Below, piece by piece: positions 4,867 through 40,174 of a stretch of 64,000 bases of DNA. Below the pieces are notes generated by a model. The model saw nothing but the letters and a program-made list of their open reading frames with translations. It was not told the origin of the DNA and made no database searches. Position 1 is the stretch's first letter. Every line of letters starts with the position of its first letter. The translations under genes and the position numbers were made by a program. The stretch lies in NCBI GenBank assembly GCA_948567375.1, contig OX419761.1, forward strand, positions 8,098,243-8,162,242, given 5' to 3'. This DNA comes from Lunularia cruciata. Taxonomy: Eukaryota > Streptophyta > Marchantiopsida > Lunulariales > Lunulariaceae.

Positions 4867-5583
4867 TTTTGTGCCCTTTGCATCACACTTTTACTTTGGG
4901 TTGAACTTGCTGACTTTGGAAGAAAGAAATCAAATGCGCTCACACTTTCATCCGGATCTGCGGAAGGAGGCAGATATAGATGAATGATATAATATGGAGA
5001 GGGTGCGAGACAGGGATGAGTACTACAAGAAAAGTGAAAAGGAGAAATTGTAGCAATTGATGTTCCGAGGGCTAGAAAGAGAGCCAAGCCTGAGAGTTGC
5101 CTTGCAATAGTCCAGCCCCAGAAGGTGCCAGAGCTTAGCCAAATGGCAATGATGGTGAAGGTGAAAGAAGCCACACCAAAATCCAAAGAAGAGTTGGAAG
5201 GAGAAACTAAATCAAAGGAAGAAGCATCAAGAGAAGAAGAAGAGTTCACTCTATGAAGTGAAGAATCAAGTAGTGGTAGTGAAGGCAAGGCGGAGGTTCA
5301 GCAAACATGAAGGTCGATGGGGGATTTAGTGAATCCGAGTCCAGAAGTCACTTTGATTGGACGAGGAGGTGAAGAGAAGGAAGAAGAAGTTGTAGCATGA
5401 CCACAAACTGCCAAATGGAAGAAAAATGTGCACGTAGCCAAGGTGGGGTCCAGTCAAGTTGTCATGGAAGAGGAGGAAAGTTTGATAGGTAAAAACCTTG
5501 AAAGTACAAAGATCACAACTTCGAGGTAATTTGCAAGAAGTAGAGTTGCTGGAAGACAAAGGCTAAGCCGATGACAAGAAATG

Positions 5584-5588: not shown

Positions 5589-5975
5589 TGTGGTGCCCAC
5601 ATTTTTTGTTTTTTTTCAAAATAAAGAAGAAGAAGTGTATAGAGAAGTCAGATTGCGCATGTATGGCTAAAGAAGGCAAAGAAAAGAGTCTTTGGGATGA
5701 AACCCGAAGTAAAGTGACTTCGGGTCATAAGGTGGAGTACTCGGAAATGCCCTATCAGCATACAACCCCAAGTAAAGTGTCTTTGTATCAGGGGGAGCTC
5801 AACTTGAGGTGAAGATAGTCTAACAACCTTTCGTCGAGGCAAGAAATTCAAGAAGGGACCCTTGAAAAACCGGCGGCTCATATGCGCAAAGGTTGATTGA
5901 CAGTGACAGGTGCATGCAGGAGGTGTGATTCTTGGTAGAAACTCAAAGTGAAGAAAGACGAAGAAAGTGCAACTC

Positions 5976-5983
5976 TATAAAAA
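5976..5983 (+). promoter_or_regulatory. TATA box upstream of the LTR ORF (B 5' LTR)
   Basis: TATAAAAA, with its first T exactly 27 nt upstream of the ATG at 6003. The same spacing occurs in the other four copies with this box (6938, 16869, 29676, 58393). Confidence 0.6.
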
Positions 5984-6002
5984 TTGAACTCGCAATGACA
6001 AA

Positions 6003-6550
6003 ATGTCGAGTAATTTTCCTTTGCCGTTGAGAAGTTGTCTTGCAGGTGATCGTGGGAAGGGAAATAGAAATGGAATCGCGTTAGTGTGTAAGGGAGAAGT
6101 CGCGAGAGTGAAATCAAGAGATAGTGAGAAGGCAAAAGAGATGGGAGGAAGAAAGAAGAACTCTGAATTCACAGTGAGAAATCATGCAATTTGGAGGTTA
6201 GATGTGATCGCTAGGATCAAAGTCTTGAGCCGACTTTGGATCACTTTCTTGGCATGGAAGTGGAATGTGAGCTTTCCAGGTTTCATGACAGAAATCATCA
6301 AGAGCAAGTGTCTCAATGGACCCAAGGGAGAAGAGAAGAGAGGAAATCCGGCTCGCTGAACAGAGTCGGATTGGAGACTTGTACTCGGGAAGGAAGCAGG
6401 CTCAGAGCAGGGGGCCATGTTCTTGGGGAAGGGAGAGATAGCTCAAGAAACTCAAGAGGTAAGAGATGCATTCTCGTCAAAGCGGACGAAGAATGGGTAC
6501 AAAATTGAGAGCTTCAAAGACCTTGTGAAGAGAGAAATTGTGAGTGCGCT
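6003..6550 (+). pseudogene. LTR-resident ORF, B 5' LTR copy, N-terminal part
   Basis: It begins ATGTCGAGC (MSSNFPLPLRSCLAGDRGKG) and runs through MGGRKKNSEF, a conserved WITFLAWKWNVSFPGFM block and GNPAR, where TGA at 6357-6359 replaces the TGG seen in A. The same frame goes on through ESDWRLVL-type sequence to the insertion of element A at 6550, then resumes at 20268. Known protein families do not come to mind for this part. Confidence 0.7.
6546..6550. repeat. Target-site duplication of element A (left copy, GCGCT)
   Basis: GCGCT immediately before the A 5' LTR is repeated exactly at 20263-20267 after the 3' LTR. Joining the flanks restores the B LTR alignment. Confidence 0.92.
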
Positions 6551-6937
6551 TGTGGTGCCCACATTTTTTGTTTTTTTCCAAAATAAAGGAAAAGAAGTGT
6601 ATAGAGAAGTCGGATTGAGCCTGTATGGCCAAAGAAGATGAAGAAAATTGTCTTCGGGGTGAAACTCGAAGTAAAGTGACTTTGGGTCATAAGGCAAAGT
6701 ACTCTGAAATGCCGTGTCAGCATACAATATGAAGTAAATTGTCTTTGGCTTGGGGGGAGCTCAACCCGAGGCAAAGACAGTCTAACAACCTTTCGTCGGG
6801 GCAAGAAATTCAAGAAGGGGCCGTTTCAAAATTGGCGGCTCATACGTGCGAAGGTGGGGTGACAGTGACAGGTGCATGCCGGAGGTGTGATTTCTTGGTA
6901 GAAACTCAAAGCGACAGAAGACAAAGAAGTGCAACTC

Positions 6938-6945
6938 TATAAAAA
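6938..6945 (+). promoter_or_regulatory. TATA box upstream of the LTR ORF (A 5' LTR)
   Basis: TATAAAAA, 27 nt before the ATG at 6965. Plant TATA boxes usually lie about 25-35 nt upstream of the transcription start. A transcript from here would therefore start at or beside that ATG, and translation might begin at the next in-frame ATG (near 7102, MGGGKKNSEF). Confidence 0.6.
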
Positions 6946-6964
6946 TTGAAACTGCAATGACGAA

Positions 6965-9529
6965 ATGTCGAGCAATTTTCCTTTGCCGTTGAGGAGTCGT
7001 CTTGCAGGTGATCGGGGAAAGGGAAATAGAGTTGGACTCGTGTTAGTGCGTAAGGGAGAAGTCGAGAGAGAGAAATCGAGAGACCAAAAGAAAGCTGAAG
7101 AGATGGGAGGAGGGAAGAAGAACTCCGAATTTGCCATGAGAAATCATGCAATTCGGAGATTAGATATAGTAGCAAGGATCAAAGTCTTGAGCCAACTTTG
7201 GATCACTTTTTTGGCATGGAACTGAAACGTAAGTTTTCCAAGATTCATGATAGAAATCATCGAGAGTAAATGTCTCGATGGTCCCGAGGAAGAAGGGAAG
7301 AGAGGAAATCCGGCTTGCTGGACAGAGTCGGATTGGAGACTTGTACTCAAGAAGGAGGCAGGCTCGGAGCAGGGAGCCACGTTCTTGGGGAAAGGAGAGA
7401 TAGCCCAAGAAACGCAGGAGGTGAGAGATGCCTTCTCGTCGAAGAGGACAAAGAATGGGTATAAAGTTGAGAGCTATAAGGACCCAGTGAGGAGAGGAAC
7501 TGTGAGTGCACTAATGGCACTCCTGAAGCCGGAGAGAACTACCTATGTGATGAAACACCAAGCGGTGTTCTTTCACAAGTTATTTGCAGGAGAACCGATA
7601 AATTGGCCAAGGTGCTTTCACGGAAGAACGAGGCAGATGGTGTGGAATCTGCGGGATAAGTTGCCTCCACACTACATCGTACCATTTGCAGCCCATTTTT
7701 ACCTCGGGTTAAATCTGCTCAATGTGGCGGAGCGTAATCAAATGGTGTCTCATTTCCATCCTGATTTGAGAAGAGAAAGTCGACACGGAGGAGCAGCAAT
7801 ACATTCTCCAAATCCGGAGCACAGACGATTACTACGCGAAGACAGGGAAGAATGTGGAGGTCGTTGAAAGTACCCCGACGAAGAAGAGAACTGGGCAAGC
7901 AGAAGCCAAAGAAAACAAGAAACCTCGGAAAATGTAGAAAAATAACCCGAGGCGAGGAATGGTGGTGATTGAGTCGGAAGATGAAGACTCAGAAGGCGAA
8001 GCCGAGCTCAAGACGGAGGACTCGGACCGTGAGGAGGAACCTGAGCTGACATTGCAAAGTGGAGATACAAGCAGTGACAGTGAGGAAGGAGGAGAGATGA
8101 CATCGGTACCAGCGGCTGAAGAATACGAAGAAGAAATGCAAGCCGAAGTAGAAACCGAAGACAATGCGGCGCTGGAAGACGAAGTACCAGTGTGCAAGGA
8201 GAAGAATATCGCAGTACAGCGAGGAATTTGCTCGAGACGTAAGGCGAAGTGTGAAGCGGGACCGAGTAGAGTGAAGGAAGATGTAGAAGGAAGCTCGGGC
8301 AGTGAGGCATCGATTCCGATACAAAGACTCCAGAGAAGAAGGCGAGTATCAGGAGAACACGAGGAAAGAAGAGAGACCACTCCGCGGGAGGACGAAGTTG
8401 TCAGTAATGGAGTAGATTACCTGCAGATGGTAGTATGCCCGCTGTTGGTGAAGATGGAGAAGAAGAAGAAGGAGATGCAGTCTACTTGCCCAGAGGTAAA
8501 GACTGTGTTGCAGGTCTTATCAAGATTGGAAGAAGAAAACTCGGAGTTAAAGAAGAGTATAACCCGAGGAGAGGAAGAGAGAGAAGTATTGCGAGCAGAA
8601 GCAGTCAAGAGGAGCCAGGTAATCAAAGACCTAAAGAGAGAAGTGAGTTATCAAGAAGATCTTGCGAGGAAGAGTGACATCGCAAAGGAGAGACATGTAG
8701 CGGAGCATGAAATCTTGAAGTAGCAATTTGCTGATTCAAGAGTCGAACTCATCCATGTTATGGCGAGGGTAGCATCAAAGTATCAAGAGCTCAATTGAGT
8801 AATGGAGAGTATGGAGGAGAAGAAGCAACTTTGGCAACAAGAGTTGGCTGTGAGATATAGAGAAGAAGAGAGATTACGAGACTAACTTCGTAATCAGGAA
8901 GAGAAGGTTGCACAGAAGGAGAAAGAGAAGGAAGCGGTGAAGGCCGAATTTGAAGAAGAATTGGTGACGTACAGAGAAGAATGGCTCGCAGATCGGGAAC
9001 GCGAACGCAAGACAAGATTGGAGCCATTGAAGGAAATCATTCTCAGATGTTGAGTACAGAGGCCAGCGTTTGAATTGAGGAGACAAGATTGCACGAGTTA
9101 AAACTGTTGGTGCAGGAAACAAGGCGAAGACAAGCAAAAGATATAGATTTGAATGCCTTGTTGATTAAATTGAGAACTCGTGTAGATAGGAAGATCTTAG
9201 AAGTAGAAGACATTATCGCGATTAGATTAGACTTAGTGAGAATAGAGTTAGAAAAGCTTCGGCAGGATGTTAAGGCCAAACCTGAAGTAGATAACATCGG
9301 GATCCAAATGTCTTCGGAGTTGCCCTCAGAGACATTAGAGAAGAGTGGGTCGAAGGATGAGGAGTTAGATAGATTACCCACTAGTGCAATTTCAGATCAG
9401 GAAAGAGAATTGCTGGATCTGGTAGAAGATGTAGGAGATGTGAAACTCGAGGAAAATGTAGTAGGAAGTAAGATTACTTTGGGTTTGGGTTTGAAAGCTG
9501 AGGAAGAAGTAGACATCGGATCGGATTAG
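6965..9529 (+). pseudogene. LTR-resident ORF, A 5' LTR copy
   Basis: This is the same protein as at 16896-19468 but more damaged. It starts MSSNFPLPLRSRLAGDRGKG. Lesions visible against the other copies are TGA at about 7223-7225 (TGG elsewhere), an extra A near 7778, TAG at 8721-8723 (CAG elsewhere), further stops near 8797 and 8882, and a small deletion near 9050. The longest open stretches are 7247-7867, 7959-8723 (acidic segment and start of the coiled coil) and 9089-9529 (C-terminus, ending VDIGSD). No catalytic motif, signal peptide or membrane segment is evident. Confidence 0.75.
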
Positions 9530-9646
9530 TAACCAATTTGAGATTTGAAGGGGCAGATATGAAGAGGTGCATTGTCATTTCGGATCTACAGGTTAGAACA
9601 GTTGTTGTAGAAACGGTATAGTTGTTAGAATTGTCGATTTGTTCAC

Positions 9647-9654
9647 TATTTAAG
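9647..9654 (+). promoter_or_regulatory. Weak TATA-like box downstream of the LTR ORF (A 5' LTR)
   Basis: TATTTAAG, about 120 nt after the ORF stop; counterparts are 19586-19593, 22415-22422 (TACTTAAG), 40175-40182 and 61080-61087. If it drives the genomic RNA, the ORF lies in U3. If the 6938 box does, the ORF lies in R/U5. The sequence alone does not decide. Confidence 0.4.
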
Positions 9655-10330
9655 AGTGGCATTCGCATGAAATTGTTGTTCAATGCTCATTATTTCTGAG
9701 AATAGATAAAGCAAAGTGCTGTGAAGCAGTGCTCGTCGCTTGAGCTTGATTCCGAGTATCAACTTTGTAATTGTGTTTGTGAGTGTTTGGAGAAATTCGA
9801 AGTGCAAGTCAGAGTGCTTGTTGGATGTTGGATTCCACAGCCTTGATCTTCGTTCTATGTGTTTGATCCTAAGTGAAGTGCAATCAAAGCAATGCCTTGA
9901 CAGATCTGAGAGGAATTGTAGTGTTGGTAGTATTCTGCATTTGTGAGTGCAGTGCAAAGTTGATGTGAAGCAATTTTGATCGAGGAAGTTGTGCCTTCAG
10001 TGGAAGGGTAGAACACAATTCTGAGGCAAAGTCGTTTTGCAGTGAAGTGCCATTTTTGGGAGAGCCTGAATCATCACAATCAAGATTGTTTGGAAAGATT
10101 TGATGAAGTTGCGATTATGGAGTGTTAATTTGTGAGAAGACTGCGAGTCACTGCTTGTTACTCTCTTCTGGGTGTGGTTTCTTCCTGAGAGACTAAAGAA
10201 GAACTCAAGAAGAACTGAAATTGTTACTTTGCTTCGTATTTGGACATTTCTGACTTGTATCTCTGCGGGAATGAACTTTACTTACCCGATTACCGCAAAA
10301 GTGATATTTGCCGGGTTGTCACATGATTTT

Positions 10331-10347
10331 TGGCGCCCCTGCCGGGG
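10331..10347 (+). other. Primer-binding site of element A (tRNA-Asp type)
   Basis: TGGCGCCCCTGCCGGGG lies 7 nt after the LTR end. It matches the complement of the plant tRNA-Asp 3' end (TGGCGCCGTTGCCGGGG) except for two bases in the middle. Athila/Tat-type plant elements commonly use this primer. Confidence 0.8.
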
Positions 10348-10411
10348 ATACAAATCTCAGAAGTGGAAGAATAAAAAGCCAAATTGGAAACTGGGTATCA
10401 AGGCAATATGA

Positions 10412-12415
10412 ATGTCTGGATTGAAAGAACAACGGGAAGAGAGAGCTCGAAGACGAGCACTTCAACATGAAGAAGACGAACGTCTGAACGTCCCATCCAT
10501 CGTTGACGAAACTGAGCGAGAGGCATTGGAGTTTCAACTCCTTCATGAAGTGCAAGAAGCCCTGCGAGAACTTGATCACAAGAAACACGAAGGCGGTTGG
10601 CAAGGCTACTTCGCATCTCCCTGTTCTTCCAAGAAGAAGAAAGAATCGAGTGGGCAAACATATGCATTGCGGCCCAGTACACCAACTTCCCCTAGAGCTG
10701 TAAAGGAAATTGTTTCCTTGAAGACCTTTGTTCGAGAAAAGACAGCACGCACACTTACTAAAGACGAGTGTCAACATCTTCTACGAACGATTCCTTGGTT
10801 GTCCCAAAGGAATTTGGAAGAACCTATTGAAGGTGTTGATCCTGAATCTTCCACTCGGGTTGAAGTCGACCCTCTCAGAGTAGAAATTGTCGAAGAAGAC
10901 CCTGCATTGAATTTGACGAATTGGAATCCCTGAGCTGACAACACGACGTCAATTCCAGCCAATTCTTCCGTTCCGTCAAGTTCTACATTACCTCAGCCGA
11001 TCCCAGTGCATCGAACAATGACTTCGCTTCCTGTCACCCGACATGCCTATCAGAAGTATAAGGGGATGGAATAAAACAAAGACCCCGATGAATTCATCGA
11101 AGAATTCGAAGTCATCTCCTTTGCTAACAAGGAGCATGACTCGGCGGATCGACTAAGAGTTTTTCCAAGTCTGCTTCGCAAGAAAGCTCGGAGCTGGTAC
11201 ACTCATGTGACTCAGAAGGGGTTTGTACCATCGGACTGGGCAGACTTGAGAAACAACTTCCTAGAACGATTCCGGGAGGTTGACTATGATACGAGTGTCT
11301 TCGCGGCACTAAACGATTTGGATCGGGGCAAGAAGGAGAAGTTGAGAGACTACTCTGAGTGGTTCATGGCATTATTGAACCGAGTTCCCAAGCAATCGGG
11401 GGTGGTGGGATACTCCGATGCCCAAGCCATTACCTGGTTCCTCGGGGGCCTGTCACCAGAGATATGAATCTTTGCCAGGGAGAGGAACATAACTTCCCTC
11501 GATAAAGTACTCAAACATGTTGCTCGTTATGAAGCGGCCCACTCTCACTCTGCCGGTAACCAGAGAAATCGGGAGAAGAAGGGCAAGAAGCCCAGAAGGA
11601 GAGCTTCACGCAGCACCTCCCCTTCTTCGGACGAATCCTCTACGTCTTCAAGCTCTTCTTTGGAATCCGAAGAAGAATCAAAGCCAAGACGAGTTAGAAG
11701 ACGTGGAGGCAAGAAACCAGTGACTCCACCAGCCAAGAGTGTACATAAGGCAGATACGAAGCTGGATGCCCTCATCAAGGATTTTTTGGATTTCAAGATC
11801 CAGATGATTGGGGCTAAGGACCAAAGAAAGGCCCTAGCATTTGGACGATCTAATGTGTGGTGCACCGCATGTGGCAAATCCAGCCACGCCAACACAGAAT
11901 GCAATACTCATAATGCATTCCCGATGCAGCAAATTAATTGGGTTCCGGGATGGAACCAAGACGATGACAAAGAGGCGGTGTACCAAACTCAGGAGGTACA
12001 GCCTCAACCGAGCACATCGTATCAAGGTCCAAGGTTTGGACCCAGGGAGTATAACCCCAATGCTCCTGCACGAAGACCACCGATCAGCAACCAAAATTGC
12101 CCTCAGAATGTTGCGCTCGGAGCCTGTTATAATTGTGGCTCGATGGGACATTGGTCTCCAAATTGTCCCGAGCCAAGAAGGAAAATTGGGTACGTTCCCC
12201 TGTGTCGAAATTGTAAAGGATCGGGGCAAACGGGCAACCAATGCCCTCACCCGCCAAACCCAAAGCCTCCTATAAAATATGTACGGACCCCCGCTGAGCG
12301 TGCAACACTTCAGCCGAAGGGAGATACAAATGTAAATTGTATAACTCTTGAGGAAGAAAGACCTCACGAAGGGAATCCGGCCTCAGAAGGAGAATGGCCA
12401 GACCTTGAATTTTGA
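10412..12415 (+). pseudogene. Gag of element A, three zinc knuckles (broken)
   Basis: One frame from ATG 10412 (MSGLKEQREERARRRALQ) to TGA 12413-12415, with in-frame stops at 10931 (TGG in B), 11072 (CAA in B) and 11465. The middle (about 11090-11460) is the retrotransposon Gag core: KKARSWYTHV, then WADLRNNFLERF and LRDYSEWFMALL. A Ser/Glu-rich, then Arg/Lys-rich stretch follows. Three Cys/His boxes come next at 11861-11902 (CTACGKSSHANTEC), 12125-12166 (CYNCGSMGHWSPNC) and 12203-12244, where the His of the third is Gln; in B it is His. In B this frame continues into pol. In A one A is missing just before the stop, so the separate pol frame is probably a lesion. Confidence 0.85.
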
Positions 12416-13380
12416 AAGTTGAGACACGCTCCACCAAGAAGAAGCGTGATCCCAAAGAACTGAGTACGACCTCGTCGTCTTCCCAAAAGGCGAAGAGACA
12501 GCGCCCAAAAGAAATTCTTTTGGCCAAGGAGGAAAAGATCCTTGCAAAAGCTAAAGCTAAAGCCTTGCAGAAAGAATTAACGGAGGCATTACTCAGGACT
12601 CGGGAACTGAGTTTGGAAGAAGAGACGAAGACAAAGTCTCCAATTTTTCCGGCGGACATCCGATCCGAAGTAAAGGGTCTGATTCAAGCCAAGGTAGGCC
12701 AACCCAAGGAAGCTCGGGTTAAGGCCATCAGCAAGCCCGTCACCATTTTGAAGCATCCCGAAGTCAAGAGGGAGCATGGAGAGTCCTCGGACTCAAAGCC
12801 GAAGACGAAGATGGTCAAATTGGGAGGAGTTCCCCAATATGATATTGTAGCCGACTTGGCCACCACAAATGCCAATGTTACATTTAAGCAATTGTGGGAA
12901 GATAACAAGCTGTACAAGAGACAGCTTAATTCGGCCCTCAAGAAGGTGAGGTCGATGTCAAAGAAGGACCTGCCTGCTATCTATCATATTGAACAAGAAG
13001 ATTTGGGATCTCCCGAGGTAGATGCGGAGATTGCAGGTTGCATGATCACATCGATACCCATTGACTCTGGGTCCGGTGTGAATGTCATGACTGAAGATAC
13101 TGCGAATCGACTCGGGTATCATACGTTTGAACCAACACCCCGAGTTTTGAAGTTTGCAGACCAAACCAGGAGACGGCCCTTGGGCATGCTGTCGAACATT
13201 ACCACAATCATTGGAGGGGTACCCTTCAAGTTGAATTACATCGTGTTGCGGCCAATGACAAAAACTGGTTACCCTCTGTTGATCGGCAGACCCTGGTTGT
13301 ATAGTGCCCAAGTTGTAGTGGATTGGCATCAGCAGAAGTTAAGATTCAAGGACATTTCGACCGAGGATCAGAAGCTGTGA
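12412..13380 (+). pseudogene. Gag-pol linker and aspartic protease of element A
   Basis: A 322-codon open frame. The first 190 or so residues are a Lys/Glu-rich linker. The protease follows at about 13020-13330: IPIDSGSGVNVMTEDTANRL carries the D-S-G active site (Asp at about 13062), with the conserved tail YPLLIGRPWLYSAQVVVDWH. The enzyme cuts Gag-Pol into mature proteins in the particle. It ends at TGA 13378-13380 because A lacks several bases that B has at this point. The frame continues in 13323-14117. Confidence 0.8.
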
Positions 13381-14117
13381 GTTGGATGAAGGTTCCCCAT
13401 CTCGGGGAAACAAGTTTGTCAGGAGAGGAGGATGAGTCCGAAGATTCATCGTCTTCGTCTTCAGATGAATCCGAAGAAGAAGTCCAAGTTAATTACTTGG
13501 AATGCTACGAGGTAGAGGCTGACGACAAAGATCCATATGACCTCGCCTCGGGTGAACCTGACTTGGAGGGAGGGGGTTTGATGGCCGCTCACCTTGGGAT
13601 AAGCCAAGTAAGCCACGTTGAAGGAGTCATCAACCCCAATGACTGTCAAGAGGTGTTACTTACTGAAGGAAAAATTTTAAAAATCTTGAAGACAGTAACT
13701 TCGGAGGAGTTGGCAAGATACACTGCCCTGTTTATAGAATTCCATTCCATGTTTTCCTGGTCGATTGATCAAATGCCGGGTATTCCACGAGAATTTGGAG
13801 AACACCGGATTGATTTGATTGAAGGTGCAGTTCCGGTTCGGCAGCAAGAATACCTCCTGAACCCGAAGTACTCGCTCTTGGTAAAAGATGAAATCGATAA
13901 GTACTTAGGGGCCGGAATCATCTTCCCTGTCTTAAGCAGTGAATGGGTCTCCCCCATTGTCATTGTCCCGAAGAAGAAAATAGGGAAGATCCGAGTGTGC
14001 CAAGACTACCGAAAATTGAATGCAATCACAAGGAAAGATCATCATCCCTTGCCTTTTATCGATACAATTTTAGATCAGGTAGCTGGGCATCCTTGTTATA
14101 GTTTTCTCGATTTTTAG
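13323..14117 (+). pseudogene. Protease-RT linker and N-terminal reverse transcriptase of element A
   Basis: The open frame holds an acidic Ser-rich linker (DESEDSSSSSSDESEEE at about 13430-13480), a conserved pre-RT region (FSWSIDQMPGIPREFGEHRI) and the first RT motifs (SEWVSPIVIVPKKK, RVCQDYRKLNAITRKDHHPL). It stops at 14115-14117 because about four bases present in B are missing, shifting the frame just before GYNQV. Confidence 0.85.
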
Positions 14118-15316
14118 GGTACAATCAAGTATCCATTCAAGAAGAAGACAAGGATAAAACTACATTCACGACCGATTGGGGCACTTTCACTTACAATCAA
14201 ATGCCCTTTGGGTTGTGTAATGCTCCCGCTACTTTCCAGCGGATGATGAATTTGATCTTCAAAGATTTCCTGCGCAAATTTGTTGAAGTTTTTATTGATG
14301 ACTTTTGTGTGTTTGGACGACGGGATGTACATAGAGATTACCTTTGCCAAACGTTTGAAAGGTGTTGTTTTGCCGGCTTGTCATTACACCCGGAGAAATG
14401 CTTCTTCGCAATGAAGGAGGGAATTCTTCTGGGGCATCGGGTGTCAAGCCGAGGTATTGAAGTCGATGTTGAGAAGGTTAAAATAATTGCAGCTTTGGAA
14501 TCCCCGAAGAACATCCGGGAGCTGAGAGCCTTCTTGGGACATGTCGGATATTACAGACGCTTTGTATCAAACTATGCAGTGCTTGCTGCACCACTTACAA
14601 AGCTTATGAAGAAATCCAAAGACTATCCGTGGGAAGCACATCAAGAAGAAGCATTCCAGGTGTTGAAGAAGAAACTGGTTGAAGCACCAGTCATGAGGGC
14701 CCCGAATTGGGACGTCCCTTTTCATGTGTATGTGGACACTTCGTCCATGGCCATCGGGGTTGTCTTAAGTCAGAAGGACGAGAAGAAGAAGGACTACCCG
14801 GTGTATTATGCCAGCCGACAACTTTCAGTTTCTGAAAAGAATTATTTGACGACTGAAAGAGAAGCACTCGGAATGGTGTATGCCTGCAAGAAATTTCGGC
14901 ATTATTTGTTGGGGTATGAGTTTGTCTTCTATGTTGACCATTATGCATTGCAACATCTGGTCAAGAAGGCAGATTTATCGGGACAAATTGCAAGATGGAT
15001 CTTGTTATTACAAGAGTTCACGTATACTGTACAAGTGAGGAAGGGAGCTTTGCATTCAAATGCGGACTTCTTGTCCAAGTTAGACACTCAAGACCAGGAG
15101 TGGGAAATTGACGATCGGTTCCCTGACGAAGAGTTGTATCACTTATCAGCAATGAGAAGTACGAGGTATGCAGATGAATATAATTATCTGAATACTCTCC
15201 ATTGTCCTGAGGGGATGGATCCGGAACAGCGGGCAGTCTTTCTCCAAAAAATGGGGCCATACCAACTTAAACACAACATTTTATTTAAGATGGGCAAAGA
15301 CGAAGTACTTTGGTGA
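14118..15316 (+). pseudogene. Reverse transcriptase core and RNase H of element A
   Basis: An in-frame piece that includes MPFGLCNAPATFQRMM and the catalytic FIDDFCVFG (14291 onward, the YxDD box with Phe). Next come the RT thumb and connection (LRAFLGHVGYYRRFVSNYA) and RNase H (VYVDTSSMAIGVVLSQ, YASRQLSVSEKNYLTTEREA, YVDHYALQHL, NADFLSKL). RT copies the element RNA into DNA and RNase H removes the template. The frame is closed by TGA at 15314-15316, where B has CGA, and integrase follows in the same frame. Confidence 0.9.
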
Positions 15317-15319
15317 TGC

Positions 15320-16470
15320 TTGGAGTCATACGAAGTAGGAGGAGTAATTGAATCTTTACACTCCGAGGCATCGGGAGGACACTATGCTCTGAAGAATACT
15401 GTAAAGAAAATTCTTTTGGCAGGGTATTGGTGGCCTACAATGTACAAAGATGTACATGCTCATATCCAAAGCTGTGATGCGTGTCAGAGAACGGGGAAGC
15501 CGACGGCCACTTCTCAATGGCCTTTGAAACCAATTTTGCCTTTGGCCCCCTTTGATAAATGGGGGATTGATTTTGTGGGTCCCATTCAACCAGTGACCCG
15601 AGTCACAAGAAAGCGCTATATTTTGGTTTGCACTGATTACGCTACCAAGATGGTTGAAGCGGAAGCAACTCGCAGAGATGATGCTGAAACTGTGGCGGAA
15701 TTTTTCCTTCGAAACATCATCTCCCGATATGGGTGTCCTCTGGAATTTTTTTGTGACCGAGGAACACATTTTTTGAACTCTGTAATGGAGGAGTTAACCA
15801 AGTATTTTCAGATTAAACATCCGAAGATGACTCCTTATAACCCAAAAGCAAATGGCTTAACGGAAAAAGCGAATGGGTTACTTTGTAAAATTTTGAATAA
15901 GGTGACTATCAATTATGCCTATGACTGGGATACAAAATTACCAGCGCGTTATGGGCCTATCGGACGACAGAGAAGATTACAACCAAACAAACCCCATACT
16001 TCTTGACATATGGCTTGCATCCCATACTGCCAGTTGAATTTGAAGTTCCGACTTATCAAGTCCTGTGCGAAGAACGAATGTCGGAAGAGGAAAGTCAGGA
16101 TCTTTGGATTCATCAACTGATGTGGTTAGAAGAGAAGAGAGACGATGCAATGCAAACCACGAAAGAAGTACAAGCACAGAGGAAAGTCAGGCACGATCAG
16201 AGAATCAAGCCTGTGACTGTACCAGAAGGGGATTTGGTTTTGTTATATGACAATCACCGAATATGTTTTCCAGGCAAGTTGCATTTGAGATGGATGGGTC
16301 CCTATCAAGTTCGTCATCTTTACGAAAATGGATCCATGCAACTCGTCGATTTGGAAGGTAATCCTTTTGCCACTCGAGTAAACGGGTGGAGAGTTCGGAG
16401 ATATTGGACCATAGACTCGGAAGTTTCTAAGACACCCGAGGTCTATGTTCGCGGGGACGCTCACATTTGA
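15320..16470 (+). pseudogene. Integrase of element A
   Basis: The His/Cys zinc-binding part is at 15340-15490 (LHSEASGGHYA, then SCDACQ). The catalytic core has Asp in GIDFVGP (about 15568), Asp in CDRGTHF (15755) and Glu in NGLTEKANG (15863). The last two are 35 residues apart, the DX35E spacing of retroviral integrases. A frameshift near 15950-16006 moves the end to the next frame. There a GPY-type C-terminal module is seen (LHLRWMGPYQVRHLYENGSM) before TGA at 16468-16470. I see no chromodomain. It catalyses insertion of the cDNA into the genome. Confidence 0.88.
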
Positions 16471-16480
16471 GGGAGGGGGT
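16469..16480 (+). other. Polypurine tract of element A
   Basis: GAGGGAGGGGGT directly before the 3' LTR at 16482; the purine run primes plus-strand DNA synthesis. B has the same tract at 29279-29288. Confidence 0.8.
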
Positions 16481-16868
16481 ATGTGGTGCCCACATTTTTT
16501 GGTTTTTTCCAAAATAAAGGAGAAGAAGTGTATAGAGAAGTTGGATTGAGCCTGTATGGCCGAAGAAGACAAAGAAAATTGTCTTCGGGGTGAAACCCAA
16601 AGTAAAGTGACTTCGGGTCATAAGGCAAAGTACTCTGAAATGCCGTGTCAGCATATAATACGAAGTAAATTGTCTTCGGCTCGGGGGGAGCTCAACCCGA
16701 GGCAAAGACAGTCTAACAACCTTTTGTTAGGGCAAGAAATTCAAGAAGGGGCCATTTCAAAATTGGCGGCTCATACGCATGAAGGTGGGGTGACAGTGAC
16801 AGGTGCATGCCGGAGGTGTGATTTCTCGGTAGAAACTCGAAGCGACGGAAGACAAAGAAGTGCAACTC

Positions 16869-16876
16869 TATAAAAA
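16869..16876 (+). promoter_or_regulatory. TATA box upstream of the LTR ORF (A 3' LTR)
   Basis: TATAAAAA, first T 27 nt before the ATG at 16896, identical in spacing to four other copies. Confidence 0.6.
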
Positions 16877-16895
16877 TCAAAACTGCAACGAGGAA

Positions 16896-19468
16896 ATGTC
16901 AAGCAATTTTCCTTCGCCGTTGAGGAGTCGTCTTGCAGGTGATCAAGGAAAGGGAAATAGAGTTGGACTCGTGTTAGTGCATAAGGGAGAAGTTGAGAGA
17001 GAGAAATCAAGAGACCGAAAGAAAGTAGAAGAGATGGGAGGAGGGAAGAAGAACTCCGAATTTGCCGTGAGAAATCATGCAATTCAGAGATTAGATATAG
17101 TAGCAAGGATCGAAGTCTTGAGCCGACTTCGGATCACTTTTCTGGCATGGAACTGGAACGTAAGTTTTCCAAGATTCATGACAAAAACCATCAAGAGTAA
17201 ATGTCTTGATGGTCCTGAGGAAGAAGGGAAGAGAGGAAATCCGGCTTGCTGGACAGAGTCGGATTGGAGACTCGTACTCGAGAAGGAGGCAGGCTTGGAG
17301 CAAGGAGCCACGTTCTTGGGGAAAGGAGAGATAGCCCAAGAAACGCAGGAGGTGAGAGATGCCTTCTCGTTGAAGAGGACAAAGAATGGGTATAAAGTTG
17401 AGAGCTATAAGGACCTAGTGAGGAGAGGAATTGTGAGTGCACTAATGGCCCTCCTGAAGCCGGAGAGAACTACCTATGTGATGAAACACCAAGCGGTGTT
17501 CTTTCACAAGTTATTTGCAGGAGAACCAATAAATTGGGCAAGGTGCTTTCACAGAAGAACAAGGCAGATAATGTGGAATCTGCGGGATAAGTCGCCCCAC
17601 ACTACATCGTACCATTTGCAGCCCATTTTTACCTTGGGTTAAATCTGCTCAATGTGGCGGAGCGTAATCGAATGGTGTCTCATTTCCATCCTGATTTGAG
17701 AAGAGAAGTCGACGTGGAAGAGCAGCAATACATTCTCCAAATCCGGAGCACAGATGATTACTACGCAAAGATAGGGAAGAACGTGGAGGTCGTTGAAAGT
17801 ACCCCGATGAAGAAGAGAACTCGGCAAGCAGAAGCCGAAGAAAACAAGAAACCTCGGAAAATGCAGAAAAATAACCCGAGGCAAGGAATGGTGGTGATTG
17901 AGTCGGAAGATGAAGACTCAGAAGGGGAAGCCGAGCTCAAGACAGAGGACTCGGACCGTGAGGAGGAACATGAGCTGACATTGCAAAGTGGAGATACGAG
18001 CAGTGACAGTGAGGAAGGAGGAGAGATGACATTGGTACCAGCGGCTGAAGAATACAAAGAAGAAATGCAAGCCAAAGTAGAAACCGAAGACAATGCGACG
18101 CTGGAAGACGAAGTACCAGTGTGCGAGTAGAAGAAGATCGCAGTACAGCAAGGAATTCGCTTGAGACGTAAGGCAAAGTGTGAAGCAGGACCGAGTAGAG
18201 TGAAGGAAGAGGTAGAAGGAAGCTCGGGCAGTGAGGCATCGATTCCGATACGAAGACTCCAAAGAAGAAGGCAAGTATCAAGAGAACACGAGGAAGGAAG
18301 AGAGACCACTCCGCGAGAGGACAAAGTTGTCAGTAATGGAGTAGATTACCTGCAGATGGTAGTATGCCCGCTGTTGGTGAAGATGGAGAAGAAGAAGAAG
18401 GAGATGCAGTCTACTTGTCCAGAGGTAAAGACTGTGTTGCAGGTCTTATCAAGATTGGAAGAAGAAAACTCGGAGTTAAAGAAGAGTATAACCCGAGGAG
18501 AGGAAGAGAGAGAAGTATTGCGAGCAGAAGCAGTCGAGAGGAGTCAGGTAATCGAAGACCTGAAGAGAGAAGTGAGTTATCAAGAAGATCTTGCGAGGAA
18601 GAGTGACATCGCAAGGGAGAGACAGGTAGCGGAGCATGAAATCTTGAAGCAGCAGTTTGCTGATTCAAGAGTTGAACTCATCCATGCTATGGCGAGGGTA
18701 GCATCGAAGGATCAAGAGCTCGATCGAGTGATGGAGAGTATGGAGGAGAAGAAGCAACTCTGGCAGCGAGAGTTGGCTGCGAGATATAGAGAAGAAGAGA
18801 GATTACAAGACTTACTTCGTAATCAGGAAGAGAAGGTTGCACAGAAGGAGAAAGAGAAGGAAGCGGTGAAGGCCGAATTCGAAGAAGAATTGGTGATGTA
18901 CAGAGAAGAATGGCTTGCAGATCAGGAACGCGAACGCAAGACAAGATTGGAGCCATTGAAGGAAATCGTTCTCAGAGTAAACACGATGTTGAGTACAGAG
19001 GCCAACGTTTGAATTGAGGAGACGAGATTGCACGAGTTAAAACTGTTGGTGCAGGAAACGAGGCGAAGACAAGAGAAAGATACAGATTTGAATGCCTTGT
19101 TGATTAAATTGAGAACTCGTGTAGATAGGAAGATCCTAGAAGTAGAAGACAATATCGCGATTAGATTAGACTTAGTGAGAATAGAGTTAGAAAAGCTTCG
19201 GCAGGATGTTAAGGCAAAACCCGAAGTAGATAACATTGGGATCCAAATGTCTTTGGAGTTGCCCTCAGAGACATTAGAGAAGAGTGGGTCGAAGGATGAG
19301 GAGTTAGATAGATTACCCACTAGTGCAATTTCAGATCAGGAAAGAGAATTGCTGGATCTGGTAGAAGATGTAGGAGATGTGAAACCCAAGGAAAATGAAG
19401 TAGGAAGTAAGATTACTTCGGGTTCGGGTTTGAAAGCTGAGGAAGAAGTAGACATCGGATCGGATTAG
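16896..19468 (+). pseudogene. LTR-resident ORF, best-preserved copy (A 3' LTR), coiled-coil protein of unknown function
   Basis: From the conserved ATG (MSSNFPSPLRSRL) to TAG 19466-19468, about 857 codons if three lesions are discounted: a 1-base deletion near 17592, TAG at 18128-18130 and TGA at 19010-19012 (TGG in other copies). Residues about 1-300 look globular, with conserved ITFLAWNWNVSFPRFM, TESDWRLVL, TTYVMKHQAVFFHKLFAGEP and EEQQYILQIRSTDDYYAK blocks. Residues about 330-420 are very acidic (IESEDEDSEGEAELK). A Lys/Arg-rich stretch follows, then a long charged coiled coil from about 480 to 780, ending RLPTSAI and VDIGSD. No zinc knuckle, signal peptide or membrane segment is seen, so it is not an obvious Gag or Env. 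Whether it is expressed is unknown. Confidence 0.78.
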
Positions 19469-19585
19469 TAACCGATTTGAGATTTGAAGGGGCAGATATG
19501 AAGAGGTGCATTGTCATTTCGGATCTGCAGGTTAGAACAGTTGTTGTAGAAACGGTATAGTTGTTAGAATTGTCGATTTGTTCAC

Positions 19586-19593
19586 TATTTAAG
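19586..19593 (+). promoter_or_regulatory. Weak TATA-like box downstream of the LTR ORF (A 3' LTR)
   Basis: TATTTAAG at the same place as 9647-9654, in a well-conserved non-coding tail (19469-20262) that holds no ORF. Confidence 0.4.
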
Positions 19594-20262
19594 AGTGGCA
19601 TTTGCAGGAAATTGTTGTTCAATGCTCATTATTTCTGAGAATAGATAAAGCAAAGTGCTATGAAGTAGTGCTCGTTGCTTGAGCTTGATTCCGAGTATCA
19701 ACTTTGTAATTGTGTTTGTGAGTGTTTGGAGAAATTCGAAGTGCAAGTCAGAGTGCTTGTTGGATGTTGGATTCCACAGCCTTGATCTTTGTTCTATGTG
19801 TTTGATCTTGAGTGAAGTGCAATCGAAGCAATGCCTTGACAGATCTGAGAGGAATTGTAGTGTTGGTAGTATTCTGCATTTGTGAGTGCAGTGCAAAGTT
19901 GATGTGAAGCAATTTTGATCGAGGAAGTTGTGCCTTCAATGGAAGGGTAGAACACAATTCTGAGGCAAAGTTGTTTTGCAGTGAAGTGCCGTTTTCGGGA
20001 GAGCCTGAATCATCACAATCAAGATTGTTTGGAAAGATTTGATGAAGTTGTGATTATGGAGTGTTAATTTGTGACAAGACTGCGAGTCAGTGCTTGTTAC
20101 TCTCTTCTGGGTGTGGTTTCTACCCGAGAGACTAAAGAAGAACTCAAGAAGAACTGAAATTGTTACTTTGCTTTGTATTTGGACATTTCTGACTCGTATC
20201 TCTACAGGAACAAACTTTACTTACCCGATTACCGCAAAAGTGATATTTGCCGGGTTGTCACA

Positions 20263-20267: not shown

Positions 20268-22301
20268 GATGGCCATCCTGAAGTCGGAGAGAACCACTTA
20301 TGTGATGAAACACCAAGCGGTGTTCTTTCACAAGTTATTTGCAGGAGAATCAATAAATTGAGCGAGGTGTTTCCATGGGAGAACATGACAAATGGTGTGG
20401 AATTTGCGGGATAAATTGCCTCCACACTACATTGTGCCATTTGCAGCACATTTCTACCTCAGGCTGAATTTGCTGAACTCAGCGGAGCAAACTTGGATGG
20501 TGTCGCACTTGCATCCTGATTTGCAAAAGGAGGTCAATGTCAAGGAGCAGCAATACATCTTGCAAATCAGGAGCACCGATGACTACTATACGAAGACAGG
20601 GAAGAAGGTGGAGATCAAAGTGAGTTCTCCGAACTCAAAGAAGAGAAGTCAGCAGGGGGAAGCCAAAGACATGAAGAAACCTTGGAAGACCAGGGGAGGC
20701 AACCTGAGGTGAGGTATGGTGGTGATCAAGTCGGAGGATGAAGACTCAAAAGGTGATGCTGAGCTTAAGACCGAAGACTCGGAACACGAGGAGGAGCCTG
20801 AGCTAACGCTACAAAGTGTAGATACAAGTAGCAATAGCAATGAAGGAGGAGAAATGGCATTGGGGCCGGCGGCTGCAAAAGAAGAAGAAGAAGAAGTGCA
20901 GGCAGAAATCAAAGCCGAGGACAACACACAGCTGGAAGATGAAGTAATTGTGCCCAAAGAGAAGAAGATCGTAGTGCAGAGAGGAGTTCGCTCAAGACGT
21001 AAGGCAAAGTACAAAGCAGGTCCGAGTACGGTGAAGGAAGAAGCACCTAGAAGCTCGGGAAGTGAGGCATCTATTCTTATACAAAGACTGCAGAGAAGAA
21101 GGCAAGTATCGGGAGAAGAAGAGGTAAAGAAGGAGATCACTCCATAGGTTGAAGTAGTTGCCAGTGATGGAGTGGAGTACCTGCATGAAGTTGTGTGTCC
21201 GTTGTTAGTAAAGCTAGAGTACAAGAAGAAGGAGATGCAGTCGACTTGTCTTGAGGTGAAGACTGTGTTGCAGGTATTAGCAAGACTGGAAGAAGAAAAC
21301 TCGGAGTTGAAGAAGAGTAAAACCCGAGGTGAGGAGGAAAGAGAAGTACTGCGAGCGGAGGCAGTAGTGAGAAGTCAGGTAATTGAAGACCTGAAGAGAG
21401 AAGTGCATTATCAAGAGGATCTTGTGAAGAAGAGTGACATAGCAAGGGAGAGACAAGTAGCTGAGTACGAGATCTTGAAGCAGCAGTTTGCTGATTCAAG
21501 AGTAGAGGTTATCCATACTATGGCAAGAGTAGCTGCAAAGGATCAGGAGCTTGATAGGGTGATGGAGAATGTCGAGGAGAAGAAGCAACTCTGGCAATGA
21601 GAGTTGGCAGCACAATATAGAGAAGAAGAAAGATTACGAGAGTTACTTTGTAATCAGGAGGAGAGAGTTGTACAGAGGAGAAGGAGAAGGAGTTGGTGAA
21701 AGCCGAGTTTGAGGCAGAGTTGGCAATGTACAAGGAGGACTGGCTTGCGGATTGAGAACATGAAAGGATGATGAGATTGGAGCCATTGAAGGAGATTGTC
21801 CTCAGGATGAACGCAATGTTAAGTACAGAGGCCAGCATTTGGATTGAAGAGATGAGGCTGCACGAGTTGAAGTTGTTGGTGCAAGAGACAAAGAGAAGAC
21901 ATGTGAAGGACATGGATTTGAATGCCTTGTTAATTAGTCTCAAAACTCGTGTAGACTGGAAGATCTTAGAGGTAGAAGATAACATTTCAATTAGATTAGA
22001 CTTAGTGAAAATAGAAATAGAAAAACTTTGGAAAGATGTTAGAGCAAAAGCCAAAGTAGATAACATAGGAGTGCAAATGTCTTTGGAGTTACCGGTGGAG
22101 ATATTAGAGAAGAGTGGGTCGGAAGATAAAGAGTTAGATAGATTACCCACTAGTGCAATTCCATATCAGGAAAGAGAATTGCTGGATCTGATAGAAGAAG
22201 TAGAAGATATGAAACCCAAGGATAGAGTAGTAGGAAGTAAATTTACTTTGGGTTTGGGTTTGAAAGCCGATGACAAAGGAGACATCGGATCGGATAAGTA
22301 A
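20268..22301 (+). pseudogene. LTR-resident ORF, B 5' LTR copy, C-terminal part
   Basis: It resumes within the block preceding TTYVMKHQAVFFHKLFAGE and continues through PPHYIVPFAAHFYL, the acidic segment (20716-21147), the coiled coil (21172-21600 and 21768 onward) and the C-terminus ending DIGSDK at 22301. Stops occur at 20359, about 20710, 21145 and 21598, and a base is lost near 21680. The protein pattern is well kept although the nucleotide sequence differs noticeably from A. Confidence 0.7.
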
Positions 22302-22414
22302 CAGTTTTGAGATTTGAAGAGGTAGATATGAAGGGATGCATTGTCATTTTGGATTTACAGGTTACAAGAGTTGTTGTAGAACGGTATAGTTGTTAGAACT
22401 ATCGATTGATTTAC

Positions 22415-22422
22415 TACTTAAG
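22415..22422 (+). promoter_or_regulatory. Weak TATA-like box downstream of the LTR ORF (B 5' LTR)
   Basis: TACTTAAG, counterpart of TATTTAAG in element A. Confidence 0.35.
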
Positions 22423-23098
22423 AGTGGCATTTGCAGTATCATGTTGTTCAGTGCTCATAATTTTTGAGAATAGATAAAGCAAAGTGCTGTGAAGCAATGC
22501 TCGTCGCTTGAGCTTGATTCCGAGTATCAACTTTGTACTTGTGTTTGTGAGCGTTTGGAGAAATTTGAAGTGCAAGTCAGTGTGCTTGTTGGATGTTGGA
22601 TTCCATAGCCTTGATCTTCATTCTGTGTGTTTGATCCTGAGTGAAGTGCAATTGAAACAATGCCTTGACAGATCTGAGAGGAATTGTAGTGTTGGTAGTA
22701 TTGTGCATTTGTGAGTGTAGTGCAAAGTTGATGTGAAGCAATTTTGATTGAGGAAGTTTTGCCTTCAGTAGAAGGGTAGAACATAATTCTAAGGCAAAGT
22801 CGTTTTGCAGTGAAGTGTTGTTTTTGGGAGAGCCTAAATCATCACAATCAAGATTGTTTGGAAAGAATTGAAGGAGTTGTGATTAAGGAGTGTGAATTTA
22901 TGACAAGATTGGGAATCAATGCTTGTTACTCTCTTTTGGGTGTGGTTTCTACTTGAGAGACTAAAGAAGAACTCAAGAAGAACTGAAATTGTTACCTTGC
23001 TTTGTATTTGGAAATTTCTGACTCGTATCTATGCGGGAATGAACTTTACTTACCCGATTACCACAAAAGTGATATTTGCTGGGTTGTCACATGATTTT

Positions 23099-29288: not shown

Positions 29289-29675
29289 TTATGTGGTGCC
29301 CACATTTTTTTTCTTCAAAATAAAGAAGAAGAAGTGTATAGAGAAGTTGGATTGTGCTTGTATGGCTGAAGAAGGTGAAGAAAAGAGTCTTTGGGATGAA
29401 ACCCAAAGTAAAGTGACTTTGGGTCATAAGACAAAGTACTCGGAAATGCCTTGTCAGCAAACAACCCAAAGTAAAGTGTCTTTGTATCGGGGAGAGCTCA
29501 ACCCGAGGCGAAGACACTCTAACAACCTTTCATCGGGGCAAGAAATCCAAGAAGGGACCATTCAAAAACCGCCGGCTCATCCGCACAAAGGTTGATTGAC
29601 AGTGACAGGTGCATGCAGGAGGTGTGATTTCTTGGTAGAAACTCGAAGTGAAGAAAGATGAAGAAAGCGCAACTC

Positions 29676-29683
29676 TATAAAAA
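29676..29683 (+). promoter_or_regulatory. TATA box upstream of the LTR ORF (B 3' LTR)
   Basis: TATAAAAA, 27 nt before the ATG at 29703. An ATG at 29658 upstream of the box is in the same frame but is absent from the A copies. Confidence 0.6.
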
Positions 29684-29702
29684 TCAAACTTGCAATGACA
29701 AA

Positions 29703-31227
29703 ATGTCAAGGAATTTTCCTTCGCCATTGAGAAGTTGTCTTGTAGGTGATTGTGGGAAGGGAAATAGAGTTGGAATTGCATTAGTGTGTAAGGGAGAAGT
29801 CGCGAGAGTGAAATCAAGAGATAGTGAGAAGGCAAAAGAGATGGGAGGAGGAAAGAAGAACTCTAAATTTGCAGTAAGAAATCATGCAATTTGGAGGTTA
29901 GATGTGATCGCTAGGATCGAAGTCTTGAGCCAACTTTGGATCACTTTCTTGGCGTGGAATTGGAATGTGAGCTTTCCAGGTTTCATGATAGAAATCATCA
30001 AGAGCAAGTGTCTCAATGGACCCGAGGAAGAAGGGAAGAGAGGAAATCCGGCTCGCTAGATAGAGTCGGATTGGAGACTTGTACTCGGGAAGGGAGCAAG
30101 CTCGGAGCAAGGAGCCACGTTCTTGAGGAAGGGAGAGATAGCTCAAGAAACTCAAGAGGTGATGCATTCTCGTCAAATCGGACAAAGAATGGGTACAAAG
30201 TTGAGAGCTACAAAGACCTTGTGAAGAGAGGAATTGTGAGTGCTCTGATGGCCATCTTGAAGCCAGAGAGAACCACGTATGTGATGAAACACCAAGCGGT
30301 GTTCTTTCACAAGTTATTTATAGGAGAACCGATTAATTGGGCTAGGTGTTTCCATGGGAGAACAAGACAAATGGTGTGGAATTTGCGGGATAAATTGCCT
30401 CCACACTACATTGTGCCATTTGCAATGTATTTCTACCTCGGGCTGAATTTGTTGAACTCAGCGGAGCAAACTTGGATGGTGTCGCACTTCCATCCTGATT
30501 TGCAAAAGGAGGTCGATGTTGAGGAGCAGCAATACATCTTGCAAATCAAGAGCACCGATGACTACTATATGAAGACATGGAAGAACGTGGAGATCAAAGT
30601 GAGTACTCGAAACTCAAAGAAGAGAAGTCGGCAGGGCAAAGCCGAAGACACAAAGAAACCTTGGAAGACCAAGAGAGGCAACCCGAGGTGAGGTATGGTG
30701 GTGATCAAGACGGAGGATGAAGACTTCGAAGGTGATGCCGAGCTTAAGACCAAAGACTCGGAACACAAGGAGGAGCTTGAGCTAATGCTATAGAGTGGAG
30801 ATACAAGAAGCGATAGCAATGAAGGAGGAGAAATGACATCGGCACCGGCTGCAGAAGAAGAAGAAGAAGAAGTGCAGGCAAAAATTGAAGCCGAGGACAA
30901 CACACAGTTGGAAGACGAAGTAACTATGCTCGAAGAGAAGAAGATTGCGGTGCATAGAGGAGTTCGCTCAAGACATAAGGCAAAGTACAAAGCAGGTCCG
31001 AGTACGGTGAAGGAAGAAGCACCTAAAAGCTCGGGAAGTCAGGCATTTATTCCGATACGACAACTGCAAAGAAGAAGGTGAGTATCGGGAGAAGAAGAGG
31101 TAGAGAAGGAGATCACTCCACAGGTTGAAGTAGTTGCCAGTGATGGAGTGGAGTACATGCATGAAGTTGTGTGTCCGTTGTTAGTAAAGCTAGAGTACAA
31201 GAAGAAGGAGATGCAGTCGACTTGTCT
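29703..31227 (+). pseudogene. LTR-resident ORF, B 3' LTR copy, N-terminal part
   Basis: It starts MSRNFPSPLRSCL and is open to TAG 30057-30059. It then continues by frame changes to TTYVMKHQAVFFHKLFIGEP, PPHYIVPF, EEQQYILQIKSTDDYYMK, the acidic segment and the start of the coiled coil (GVEYMHEVVCPLLVKLEYKKKEMQ), where element C interrupts it. Confidence 0.7.
31224..31227. repeat. Probable target-site duplication of element C (left, GTCT)
   Basis: GTCT before the C 5' LTR; GTCC follows the 3' LTR at 38985-38988. The uninterrupted LTRs of A read CTTGTCCAGAGG here. The match is four bases with one C/T difference, so it is imperfect. Confidence 0.5.
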
Positions 31228-38984: not shown

Positions 38985-38988
38985 GTCC
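38985..38988. repeat. Probable target-site duplication of element C (right, GTCC)
   Basis: Pairs imperfectly with GTCT at 31224-31227. The B LTR text continues as CAGAGGTGAAG. Confidence 0.5.
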
Positions 38989-40049: not shown

Positions 40050-40174
40050 TAACATTTTTGAGATTTAAAGAGGCAGATATGAAGGGATGCATTGTCATTT
40101 CAGATTTGCAAGTTAGAGAGTTGTTGTAGAACGGTATAGTTGTAAGAACTATCAATTGATTCACTACTTAAGAG

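What the first reader, a model, noticed from the sequence alone, without database searches (positions are those of the whole stretch)
16896..19468. A large protein-coding frame located inside the LTRs of a Gypsy family
Every LTR of the A/B superfamily here (5' and 3' LTRs of A and B, solo LTRs E, H and L, partial LTR M) contains the same roughly 857-codon frame, about two thirds of the LTR. It encodes an N-terminal globular part, an acidic segment and a long coiled coil, with no similarity I recognise to Gag, Pol or a membrane Env. Retroviral genes that extend into an LTR are known (MMTV sag, HIV nef). A whole large gene inside a plant Gypsy LTR is not something I can match to a described family. 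Each full-length element thus carries two copies, kept identical at each transposition by reverse transcription.
Basis: partly seen in the sequence, partly recalled or inferred. Interest (0 to 1): 0.88.

Follow-up and report, generated by a model that had tools for sequence, protein, structure and literature searches.

The report
A gene inside retrotransposon LTRs
In this plant genome a large family of Gypsy retrotransposons carries a protein gene of about 810 codons inside its long terminal repeats, and natural selection has preserved the protein; I found no paper describing a gene in that position in a plant element.

Summary
The 857-codon frame lies in both LTRs of elements A and B, but no window copy is open throughout; the copy at 16896-19468 has a 1-bp deletion and two stops. 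Genome-wide it is a real gene. Among 62 aligned copies (29 A-type, 31 B-type, two others), A-versus-B differences concentrate at third codon positions (dN/dS 0.16; out-of-frame controls 0.91 and 1.06). All 5 widely shared indels are multiples of three. 55 of the 58 copies reaching codon 858 show the stop there. Relatives at 30-60% amino-acid identity lie in older LTRs of the window.

The start is probably codon 47 (811 codons): a TATA box 27 nt before codon 1 is kept in 55 of 56 copies, and codons 1-46 are closed in two distant families. 12 of 19 fully bounded A-type LTRs are solo LTRs with the full-length frame.

Best reading: an accessory ORF absorbed into U3, with its own promoter, perhaps related to the Athila-type extra ORF. 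The Pfam Transposase_32 similarity is sub-threshold and the U3 placement is indirect. The protein's function is inferred. No homologue and no published precedent was found in the collections searched.

The parts
6551..10323 (+). 5' LTR of element A, carrying the frame (broken copy, 6965-9529)
16482..20262 (+). 3' LTR of element A, TG...CA, 3781 bp; TSD GCGCT at 6546-6550 and 20263-20267
16896..19468 (+). 857-codon frame as given; here broken by a 1-bp deletion and two stops; stop codon 858 at 19466-19468
17034..19468 (+). probable coding sequence (from codon 47; 811 codons plus stop in copies without indels)
   Evidence: ATG at the exact offset in 53 of 56 fetched copies, printed window shifted by one base in the other 3; also in distant families N and O
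16869..16875 (+). TATA box (TATAAAA) upstream of the gene, candidate promoter of the LTR gene
   Evidence: kept in 55 of 56 fetched copies; TATAAAA also precedes the frame in families N (3476) and O (L060)
19586..19593 (+). TATTTAAG after the gene, candidate promoter of the genomic RNA
   Evidence: 29 of 29 A-type, 14 of 31 B-type, M and N; O has TATTTAAA; 14 B-type and Lx have TACTTAAG, 3 B-type other forms
10324..16481 (+). internal region of A: PBS TGGCGCCCCTGCCGGGGAT at 10331, gag, CCHC, protease, RT, one RNase H, integrase; PPT at 16469-16479
5589..6550 (+). first part of the 5' LTR of element B (A is inserted in it)
20268..23091 (+). rest of the 5' LTR of element B
29292..31226 (+). first part of the 3' LTR of element B (another Gypsy element inserted at 31227-38984)
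38985..40841 (+). rest of the 3' LTR of element B
58006..61756 (+). LTR (Lx) with the frame, read as a solo LTR; flanks GCCTC/GTCTT (two mismatches)
62062..63999 (-). partial LTR (M) with the C-terminal part of the frame
3678..5032 (+). older family N, N-terminal part of a relative of the gene (47-60% amino acids); inferred to be the same LTR as 41087-42781, split by B
41087..42781 (+). older family N, C-terminal part (45%) and LTR end
46156..46679 (+). older family O, N-terminal part; inferred to be the same LTR as 50099-52912
50099..52912 (+). older family O, rest of the gene (30-60%) and LTR end

Best explanation
The LTRs of this non-chromovirus Gypsy superfamily hold a genuine protein gene of about 811 codons. 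SHOWN: position in the LTR, coding nature, long purifying selection, a conserved TATA box upstream, survival of the full-length frame (usually with stops) in solo LTRs. INFERRED: the gene sits in U3, upstream of the start of the genomic RNA (candidate TATA at 19586), so the genomic RNA carries it at its 3' end and reverse transcription copies it into both LTRs. It is transcribed from its own TATA (16869) and could end at the poly(A) site of the same LTR, so each LTR, solo LTRs included, would be a complete gene when young. It probably arose as an Athila-like extra ORF between pol and the 3' LTR, brought into the LTR when the polypurine tract came to lie upstream of it. The protein (conserved N-terminal part, basic patch, acidic stretch, interrupted coiled coil) is most likely an oligomeric, probably nuclear accessory protein that helps the element's own expression or replication, for example by acting on its LTRs or against silencing; this last step is the weakest.
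For: LTR structure and TSD. Coding: A-B dN/dS 0.166 over 899 pairs (0.160 for codons 47-857), out-of-frame controls 0.91 and 1.06; 0.088 and 0.079 in codons 81-160 and 161-290, 0.11 in 481-700. Fixed A/B differences by codon position 52/44/162, against 32/42/46 and 66/58/62 between the two LTRs of single elements. Indels shared by 3 or more rows: 5 of 5 in multiples of three, at about 3 separate sites; by two rows 3 of 13; private 11 of 53. TATA in 55 of 56 copies and in N and O. U3 placement: A-B identity is 0.815 in the ORF and 0.861 upstream of it, but 0.905 after it, equal to B-B (0.900) though below A-A (0.943); fixed differences 244 of 2433 columns in the ORF, 5 of 453 after it. This is what strand transfer at R between lineages would give if R lies after the ORF. 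Solo LTRs: 12 of 19 A-type LTRs with both ends found. Athila link: PF20167 gives 4 sub-cutoff hits in the genome; the 3 that I fetched all lie in this protein's N-terminal domain. A sunflower Athila extra ORF matches PF20167 (PMC11728184, passages). No chromodomain or second RNase H found in A.
Against: No RNA data: neither the genomic start site nor the poly(A) site is known. The candidate second TATA is TACTTAAG in 14 of 31 B-type copies and in Lx, and its surroundings are the least conserved after the ORF in N and O. The shared LTR tail could instead reflect constraint. The PF20167 match is weak: 22 members scanned singly gave no such hit; 9 core segments gave none, 3 of them giving Mab-21_C at E 0.11-0.17 instead; the best hit (L061, E 8.8e-5) includes a frameshifted stretch next to the core; and so abundant a family has many chances of a weak match. 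The fourth PF20167 place and all 5 weak PF04195 places, the natural control, could not be examined. No homologue in 3 searches of 5.8 billion proteins (in one search only the 8000 best candidates were scored). The structure model was useless (pLDDT 41). RT lineage was not determined.
Confidence: 0.5

Rival explanations
1. The gene is real but lies in R/U5: the TATA at 16869 is the promoter of the genomic RNA, so the gene is the first cistron of that RNA, ahead of the primer binding site, and the minus-strand strong-stop DNA is over 3 kb long.
For: The TATA at 16869 is the only one kept in nearly all copies (55 of 56) and in both distant families; the second is mutated in about half of B and in Lx.
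Against: Gag would sit behind an 811-codon cistron and a leader of about 3.4 kb. The block shared between A, B and Lx begins after the ORF, not before it.
Confidence: 0.28
2. A captured sequence without function that happens to be open.
For: Every window copy aligned is broken, and 55 of 58 genome places scored carry at least one stop within codons 1-769.
Against: dN/dS 0.16, frame-keeping shared indels and relatives at 30-60% amino-acid identity. The stops differ between copies, although some positions recur.
Confidence: 0.02
3. The pattern comes from nucleotide-level constraint (RNA structure or regulatory DNA), not from protein.
For: The non-coding parts of the LTR are conserved too, more than synonymous sites of the frame.
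Against: Differences fall on third positions and out-of-frame dN/dS is near 1.
Confidence: 0.03
4. The gene is in U3 but was captured from a host gene, or made de novo, and is not related to Athila extra ORFs.
For: No copy reaches Pfam's cut-off and no homologue was found in protein collections. Extra ORFs of plant elements are said to come from many sources (PMC6317226, passages).
Against: 3 of 3 examined weak PF20167 hits of the genome fall in this domain, one of them (L062) only about 33% identical to it.
Confidence: 0.17

Closest known systems
Athila extra ORF (ORF1 PF03078; Transposase_32 PF20167)
   Same: Gypsy element without second RNase H or chromodomain, sense-oriented extra gene following integrase, weak PF20167 resemblance of the N-terminal domain
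   Different: In Athila the extra ORF lies between pol and the 3' LTR; here it is wholly inside the LTR, present twice per element and kept in solo LTRs
Retand/Grande/RIRE2 antisense extra ORFs (Transposase_28, PF04195)
   Same: Extra gene of a non-chromovirus Gypsy; Grande's is reported to have its own promoter (PMC7264820, passages); some Retand antisense ORFs match Smc-type models (PMC11963269, passages)
   Different: Those are antisense and internal; the 5 weak PF04195 hits of this genome were below cut-off and were not examined
Ogre 5' extra ORF (plant mobile domain, PF10536)
   Same: Sense-oriented extra gene of an element with long LTRs
   Different: Ogre's ORF is internal, after the PBS (recalled); no PF10536 match here
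MMTV sag and HIV nef (recalled)
   Same: Retroviral accessory genes lying wholly or partly in U3 and so present in both LTRs
   Different: No sequence relation looked for or found; this is a plant Gypsy element with a much longer gene and a TATA box of its own just upstream

Membership tests
LTR retrotransposon (Gypsy) | paired LTRs, TSD, PBS, PPT, gag-PR-RT-RH-INT order | tested here: met
Chromovirus | chromodomain after integrase | tested here: not met
   no Pfam match in window:15925-16467 or 28784-29185
Tat (Ogre, Retand, TatI-III) | second, archaeal-type RNase H | tested here: not met
   only one RNase H found in A; feature from PMC6317226 (passages)
Athila | RT/INT phylogenetic placement | not tested
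   no reference set of plant lineages on hand
Athila | extra ORF between pol and 3' LTR | tested here: not met
   the last pol frame ends at 16467 and the LTR starts at 16482; the gene is inside the LTR
Athila | PF03078 or PF20167 domain in the extra ORF | tested here: inconclusive
   PF20167 sub-threshold, none in other single copies; PF03078 genome search did not complete
Athila | tRNA-Asp-type primer binding site (recalled) | tested here: inconclusive
   TGGCGCCCCTGCCGGGGAT at 10331 looks Asp-like (recalled); tRNA genes not compared
LTR-encoded accessory gene (sag/nef-like layout) | gene located in U3 and present in both LTRs | tested here: inconclusive
   in both LTRs: met; U3 placement only indirect

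The most novel reading that the evidence does not exclude
Every young LTR of this superfamily is a self-contained gene: own TATA promoter, an 811-codon accessory protein and the LTR's own terminator. Solo-LTR formation, which deletes the genes of other elements, therefore leaves this one in the genome in large numbers, and reverse transcription makes its two copies identical each cycle. It arose when the polypurine tract came to lie upstream of an Athila-type extra ORF.
Probability: 0.42. Interest if true: 0.82.

Novelty: new variant of a known kind. Interest (0 to 1): 0.74.

Why it matters
LTRs of plant elements are normally treated as non-coding regulatory DNA, and solo LTRs as inert relics. 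A selected gene inside the LTR means that relics can keep coding, that silencing the LTR promoter and silencing the gene are one matter, and that annotation pipelines which mask LTRs miss proteins. It gives a testable case for how an accessory gene moves into an LTR, something otherwise known to me from animal retroviruses (recalled).

Tried and rejected
Protein searches with the N-terminal piece, the 769-residue open frame of L056 (8000 best candidates scored) and a 16-row alignment found nothing at their thresholds. Pfam and PDB sequence searches of the open frame found nothing. Weak Pfam hits of pieces that I took for chance: ELL, YwqJ-deaminase, Fib_alpha and others, ABM, RASSF8-10_RA, zf-C2H2 (one member each of 22), Mab-21_C (3 of 9 cores). 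Structure prediction of residues 1-300 gave pLDDT 41 and pTM 0.34, so I made no fold search. Transposase_28 (PF04195) gave 5 sub-cutoff hits that I did not examine. Organism: the plastid contig has trnR-CCG between rbcL and an ORF that I recognise as accD (recalled); from recall this excludes angiosperms and fits a bryophyte, fern or gymnosperm; eight contigs of 60-85 Mb make up nearly all of the 566 Mb. I did not name the species. Papers: 10 answered searches (two were about the organism, 102 about PF20167). For PMC6317226, PMC11963269, PMC7264820 and PMC11728184 I saw passages only; the rest as listings. Nothing shown describes an ORF inside a plant LTR; most subscription papers are not held.

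Full report
Structure. Element A spans 6551-20262, with LTRs 6551-10323 and 16482-20262 (95% identical), the target duplication GCGCT, a PBS at 10331 and a polypurine tract at 16469. It sits in the 5' LTR of an older element B (5589-6550 plus 20268-23091; 3' LTR 29292-31226 plus 38985-40841, itself interrupted by another Gypsy element). The internal region holds gag, CCHC, protease, RT, one RNase H and integrase, and its last frame ends at 16467, so there is no room for a further gene between pol and the LTR.

The frame. It covers LTR positions 415-2987. In the given copy it is broken by a 1-bp deletion near codon 234 and stops at codons 412 and 706. I aligned 62 copies: 29 A-type (27 fetched loci and the two LTRs of A), 31 B-type (29 loci and the two LTRs of B), Lx and M. 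L001 and L009 were dropped because they are the window's own copies. 18 of 29 A-type copies are exactly 2574 bp long. 58 copies reach codon 858: 55 show the stop there, one (E5) does not, and for two (L018, L021) the printed list was cut. Of 58 genome places scored with the L056 protein, 3 have no stop in codons 1-769, L056 itself among them.

Selection. A-B differences fall 0.248/0.209/0.544 on the three codon positions; fixed A/B differences are 52/44/162 (P about 1e-22 against equality). Between the two LTRs of one element, where no selection is expected after insertion, they are 32/42/46 and 66/58/62, not distinguishable from equal. Nei-Gojobori dN/dS is 0.166 for A-B, 0.160 for A-Lx and 0.155 for B-Lx. 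It is 0.42 and 0.54 between LTRs of single elements, which shows the bias of the method here, and 0.91 and 1.06 in the two other frames. By region (A-B): codons 1-46 0.33, 47-80 0.25, 81-160 0.088, 161-290 0.079, 291-340 0.35, acidic 341-480 0.24, 481-700 0.11, 701-770 0.14, 771-857 0.31. Indels (61 rows, M left out): shared by three or more rows 5 of 5 multiples of three, at about three separate sites; shared by two rows 3 of 13; private 11 of 53.

Depth. tblastn finds relatives at 30-60% amino-acid identity in older LTRs of the window (families N and O). A DNA search with O gave 48 matches from 40 scored candidates.

Start and promoters. CTCTATAAAAATC precedes ATG-1, its TATA beginning 27 nt before it; TATAAAA is kept in 55 of 56 fetched copies, and a TATAAAA also precedes the frame in N and O. 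The frame of ATG-1 closes after 11 codons in N and O. ATG-47 is at the exact offset in 53 of 56 copies and shifted by one base in the other 3, and is present in N and O. ATG-1 itself is also kept in all 56, so a short upstream frame is possible. After the gene, TATTTAAG at 19586 is in 29 of 29 A-type and 14 of 31 B-type copies (14 have TACTTAAG, 3 other forms), in M and N; O has TATTTAAA and Lx TACTTAAG.

U3 or R/U5. A-B identity is 0.861 upstream of the gene, 0.815 in the CDS and 0.905 after it; B-B is 0.908, 0.904 and 0.900; A-A 0.944, 0.953 and 0.943. Lx behaves likewise (A-Lx 0.830, 0.792, 0.895). Fixed A/B differences: 23 of 390, 244 of 2433, 5 of 453 columns (columns beyond LTR position ~3440 had too few B rows to count). 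Internal regions of A and B are 88.8% identical. So the tail of the LTR, and roughly gag-pol, are shared between ORF lineages that are otherwise distinct. In N and O the same tail is not extremely conserved (0.64-0.90), so constraint alone is a poor explanation. Strand transfer at an R located after the ORF is the simplest one. This is indirect, and the non-coding part before the ORF, with 23 fixed differences in 390, lies between the two.

Solo LTRs. Of 27 A-type loci, both LTR ends were recognised in 19: 12 are flanked by a 5-bp duplication (at most one mismatch) without PBS or PPT, 3 have a PBS, 3 have a PPT and 1 has two mismatches; the 8 others were not classified there. They carry the full-length frame, with the stops listed. 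The sample is the best-scoring copies, not a random one.

Relatives. Pfam found nothing in the open frame. A genome search with PF20167 gave 4 hits below the cut-off (E 0.04-0.32); the 3 that I could fetch lie in residues ~115-240 of this protein. hmmscan gave E 8.8e-5 for L061, which includes a frameshifted stretch, and 0.058 for L062, but nothing of the kind for 9 cores cut out or for the 22 members of A1. I treat this as a lead. PMC11728184 (passages) reports PF20167 in a sunflower Athila extra ORF related to Athila ORF1. PMC6317226, PMC7264820 and PMC11963269 (passages) describe extra ORFs of plant elements in the internal region; none of the passages mentions one in an LTR.

Function. Not shown. 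Heptad periodicity in 3 of 9 windows from residue 477 on (z 6.4, 5.7, 5.6; the other six -0.6 to 1.2), an acidic stretch at about 321-400 and a lysine/arginine-rich patch at about 306-329 suggest an oligomer, perhaps nuclear; strong constraint on residues 81-290 suggests that this part carries the activity.

Noticed in passing
31227-38984: A second Gypsy element with short LTRs (about 602 bp, 98.3% identical) inserted in the 3' LTR of B; older relatives lie on the minus strand at 53087-58000 and at 1-2387.
   Followed up: partly
48765-49755: Tandem array with a period of about 105 bp between the two parts of the old LTR of family O, in a stretch with strong GC skew.
   Followed up: no
window 3476-3530 and L060 (reverse strand): In the distant families N and O the first ATG after the TATA opens only an 11-codon frame (beginning MS, with YP at residues 5-6), which aligns with the start of the 857-codon frame in A and B: a possible upstream ORF.
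   Followed up: no
L062 (G000:C6:49178430-49179000): A very distant group of the same domain, 149 further places at 46-68% identity among 150 scored; context not known.
   Followed up: no
G000:C12:45609366-45609652 and others: Fragments matching rbcL on the nuclear chromosomes, probably plastid DNA insertions.
   Followed up: no
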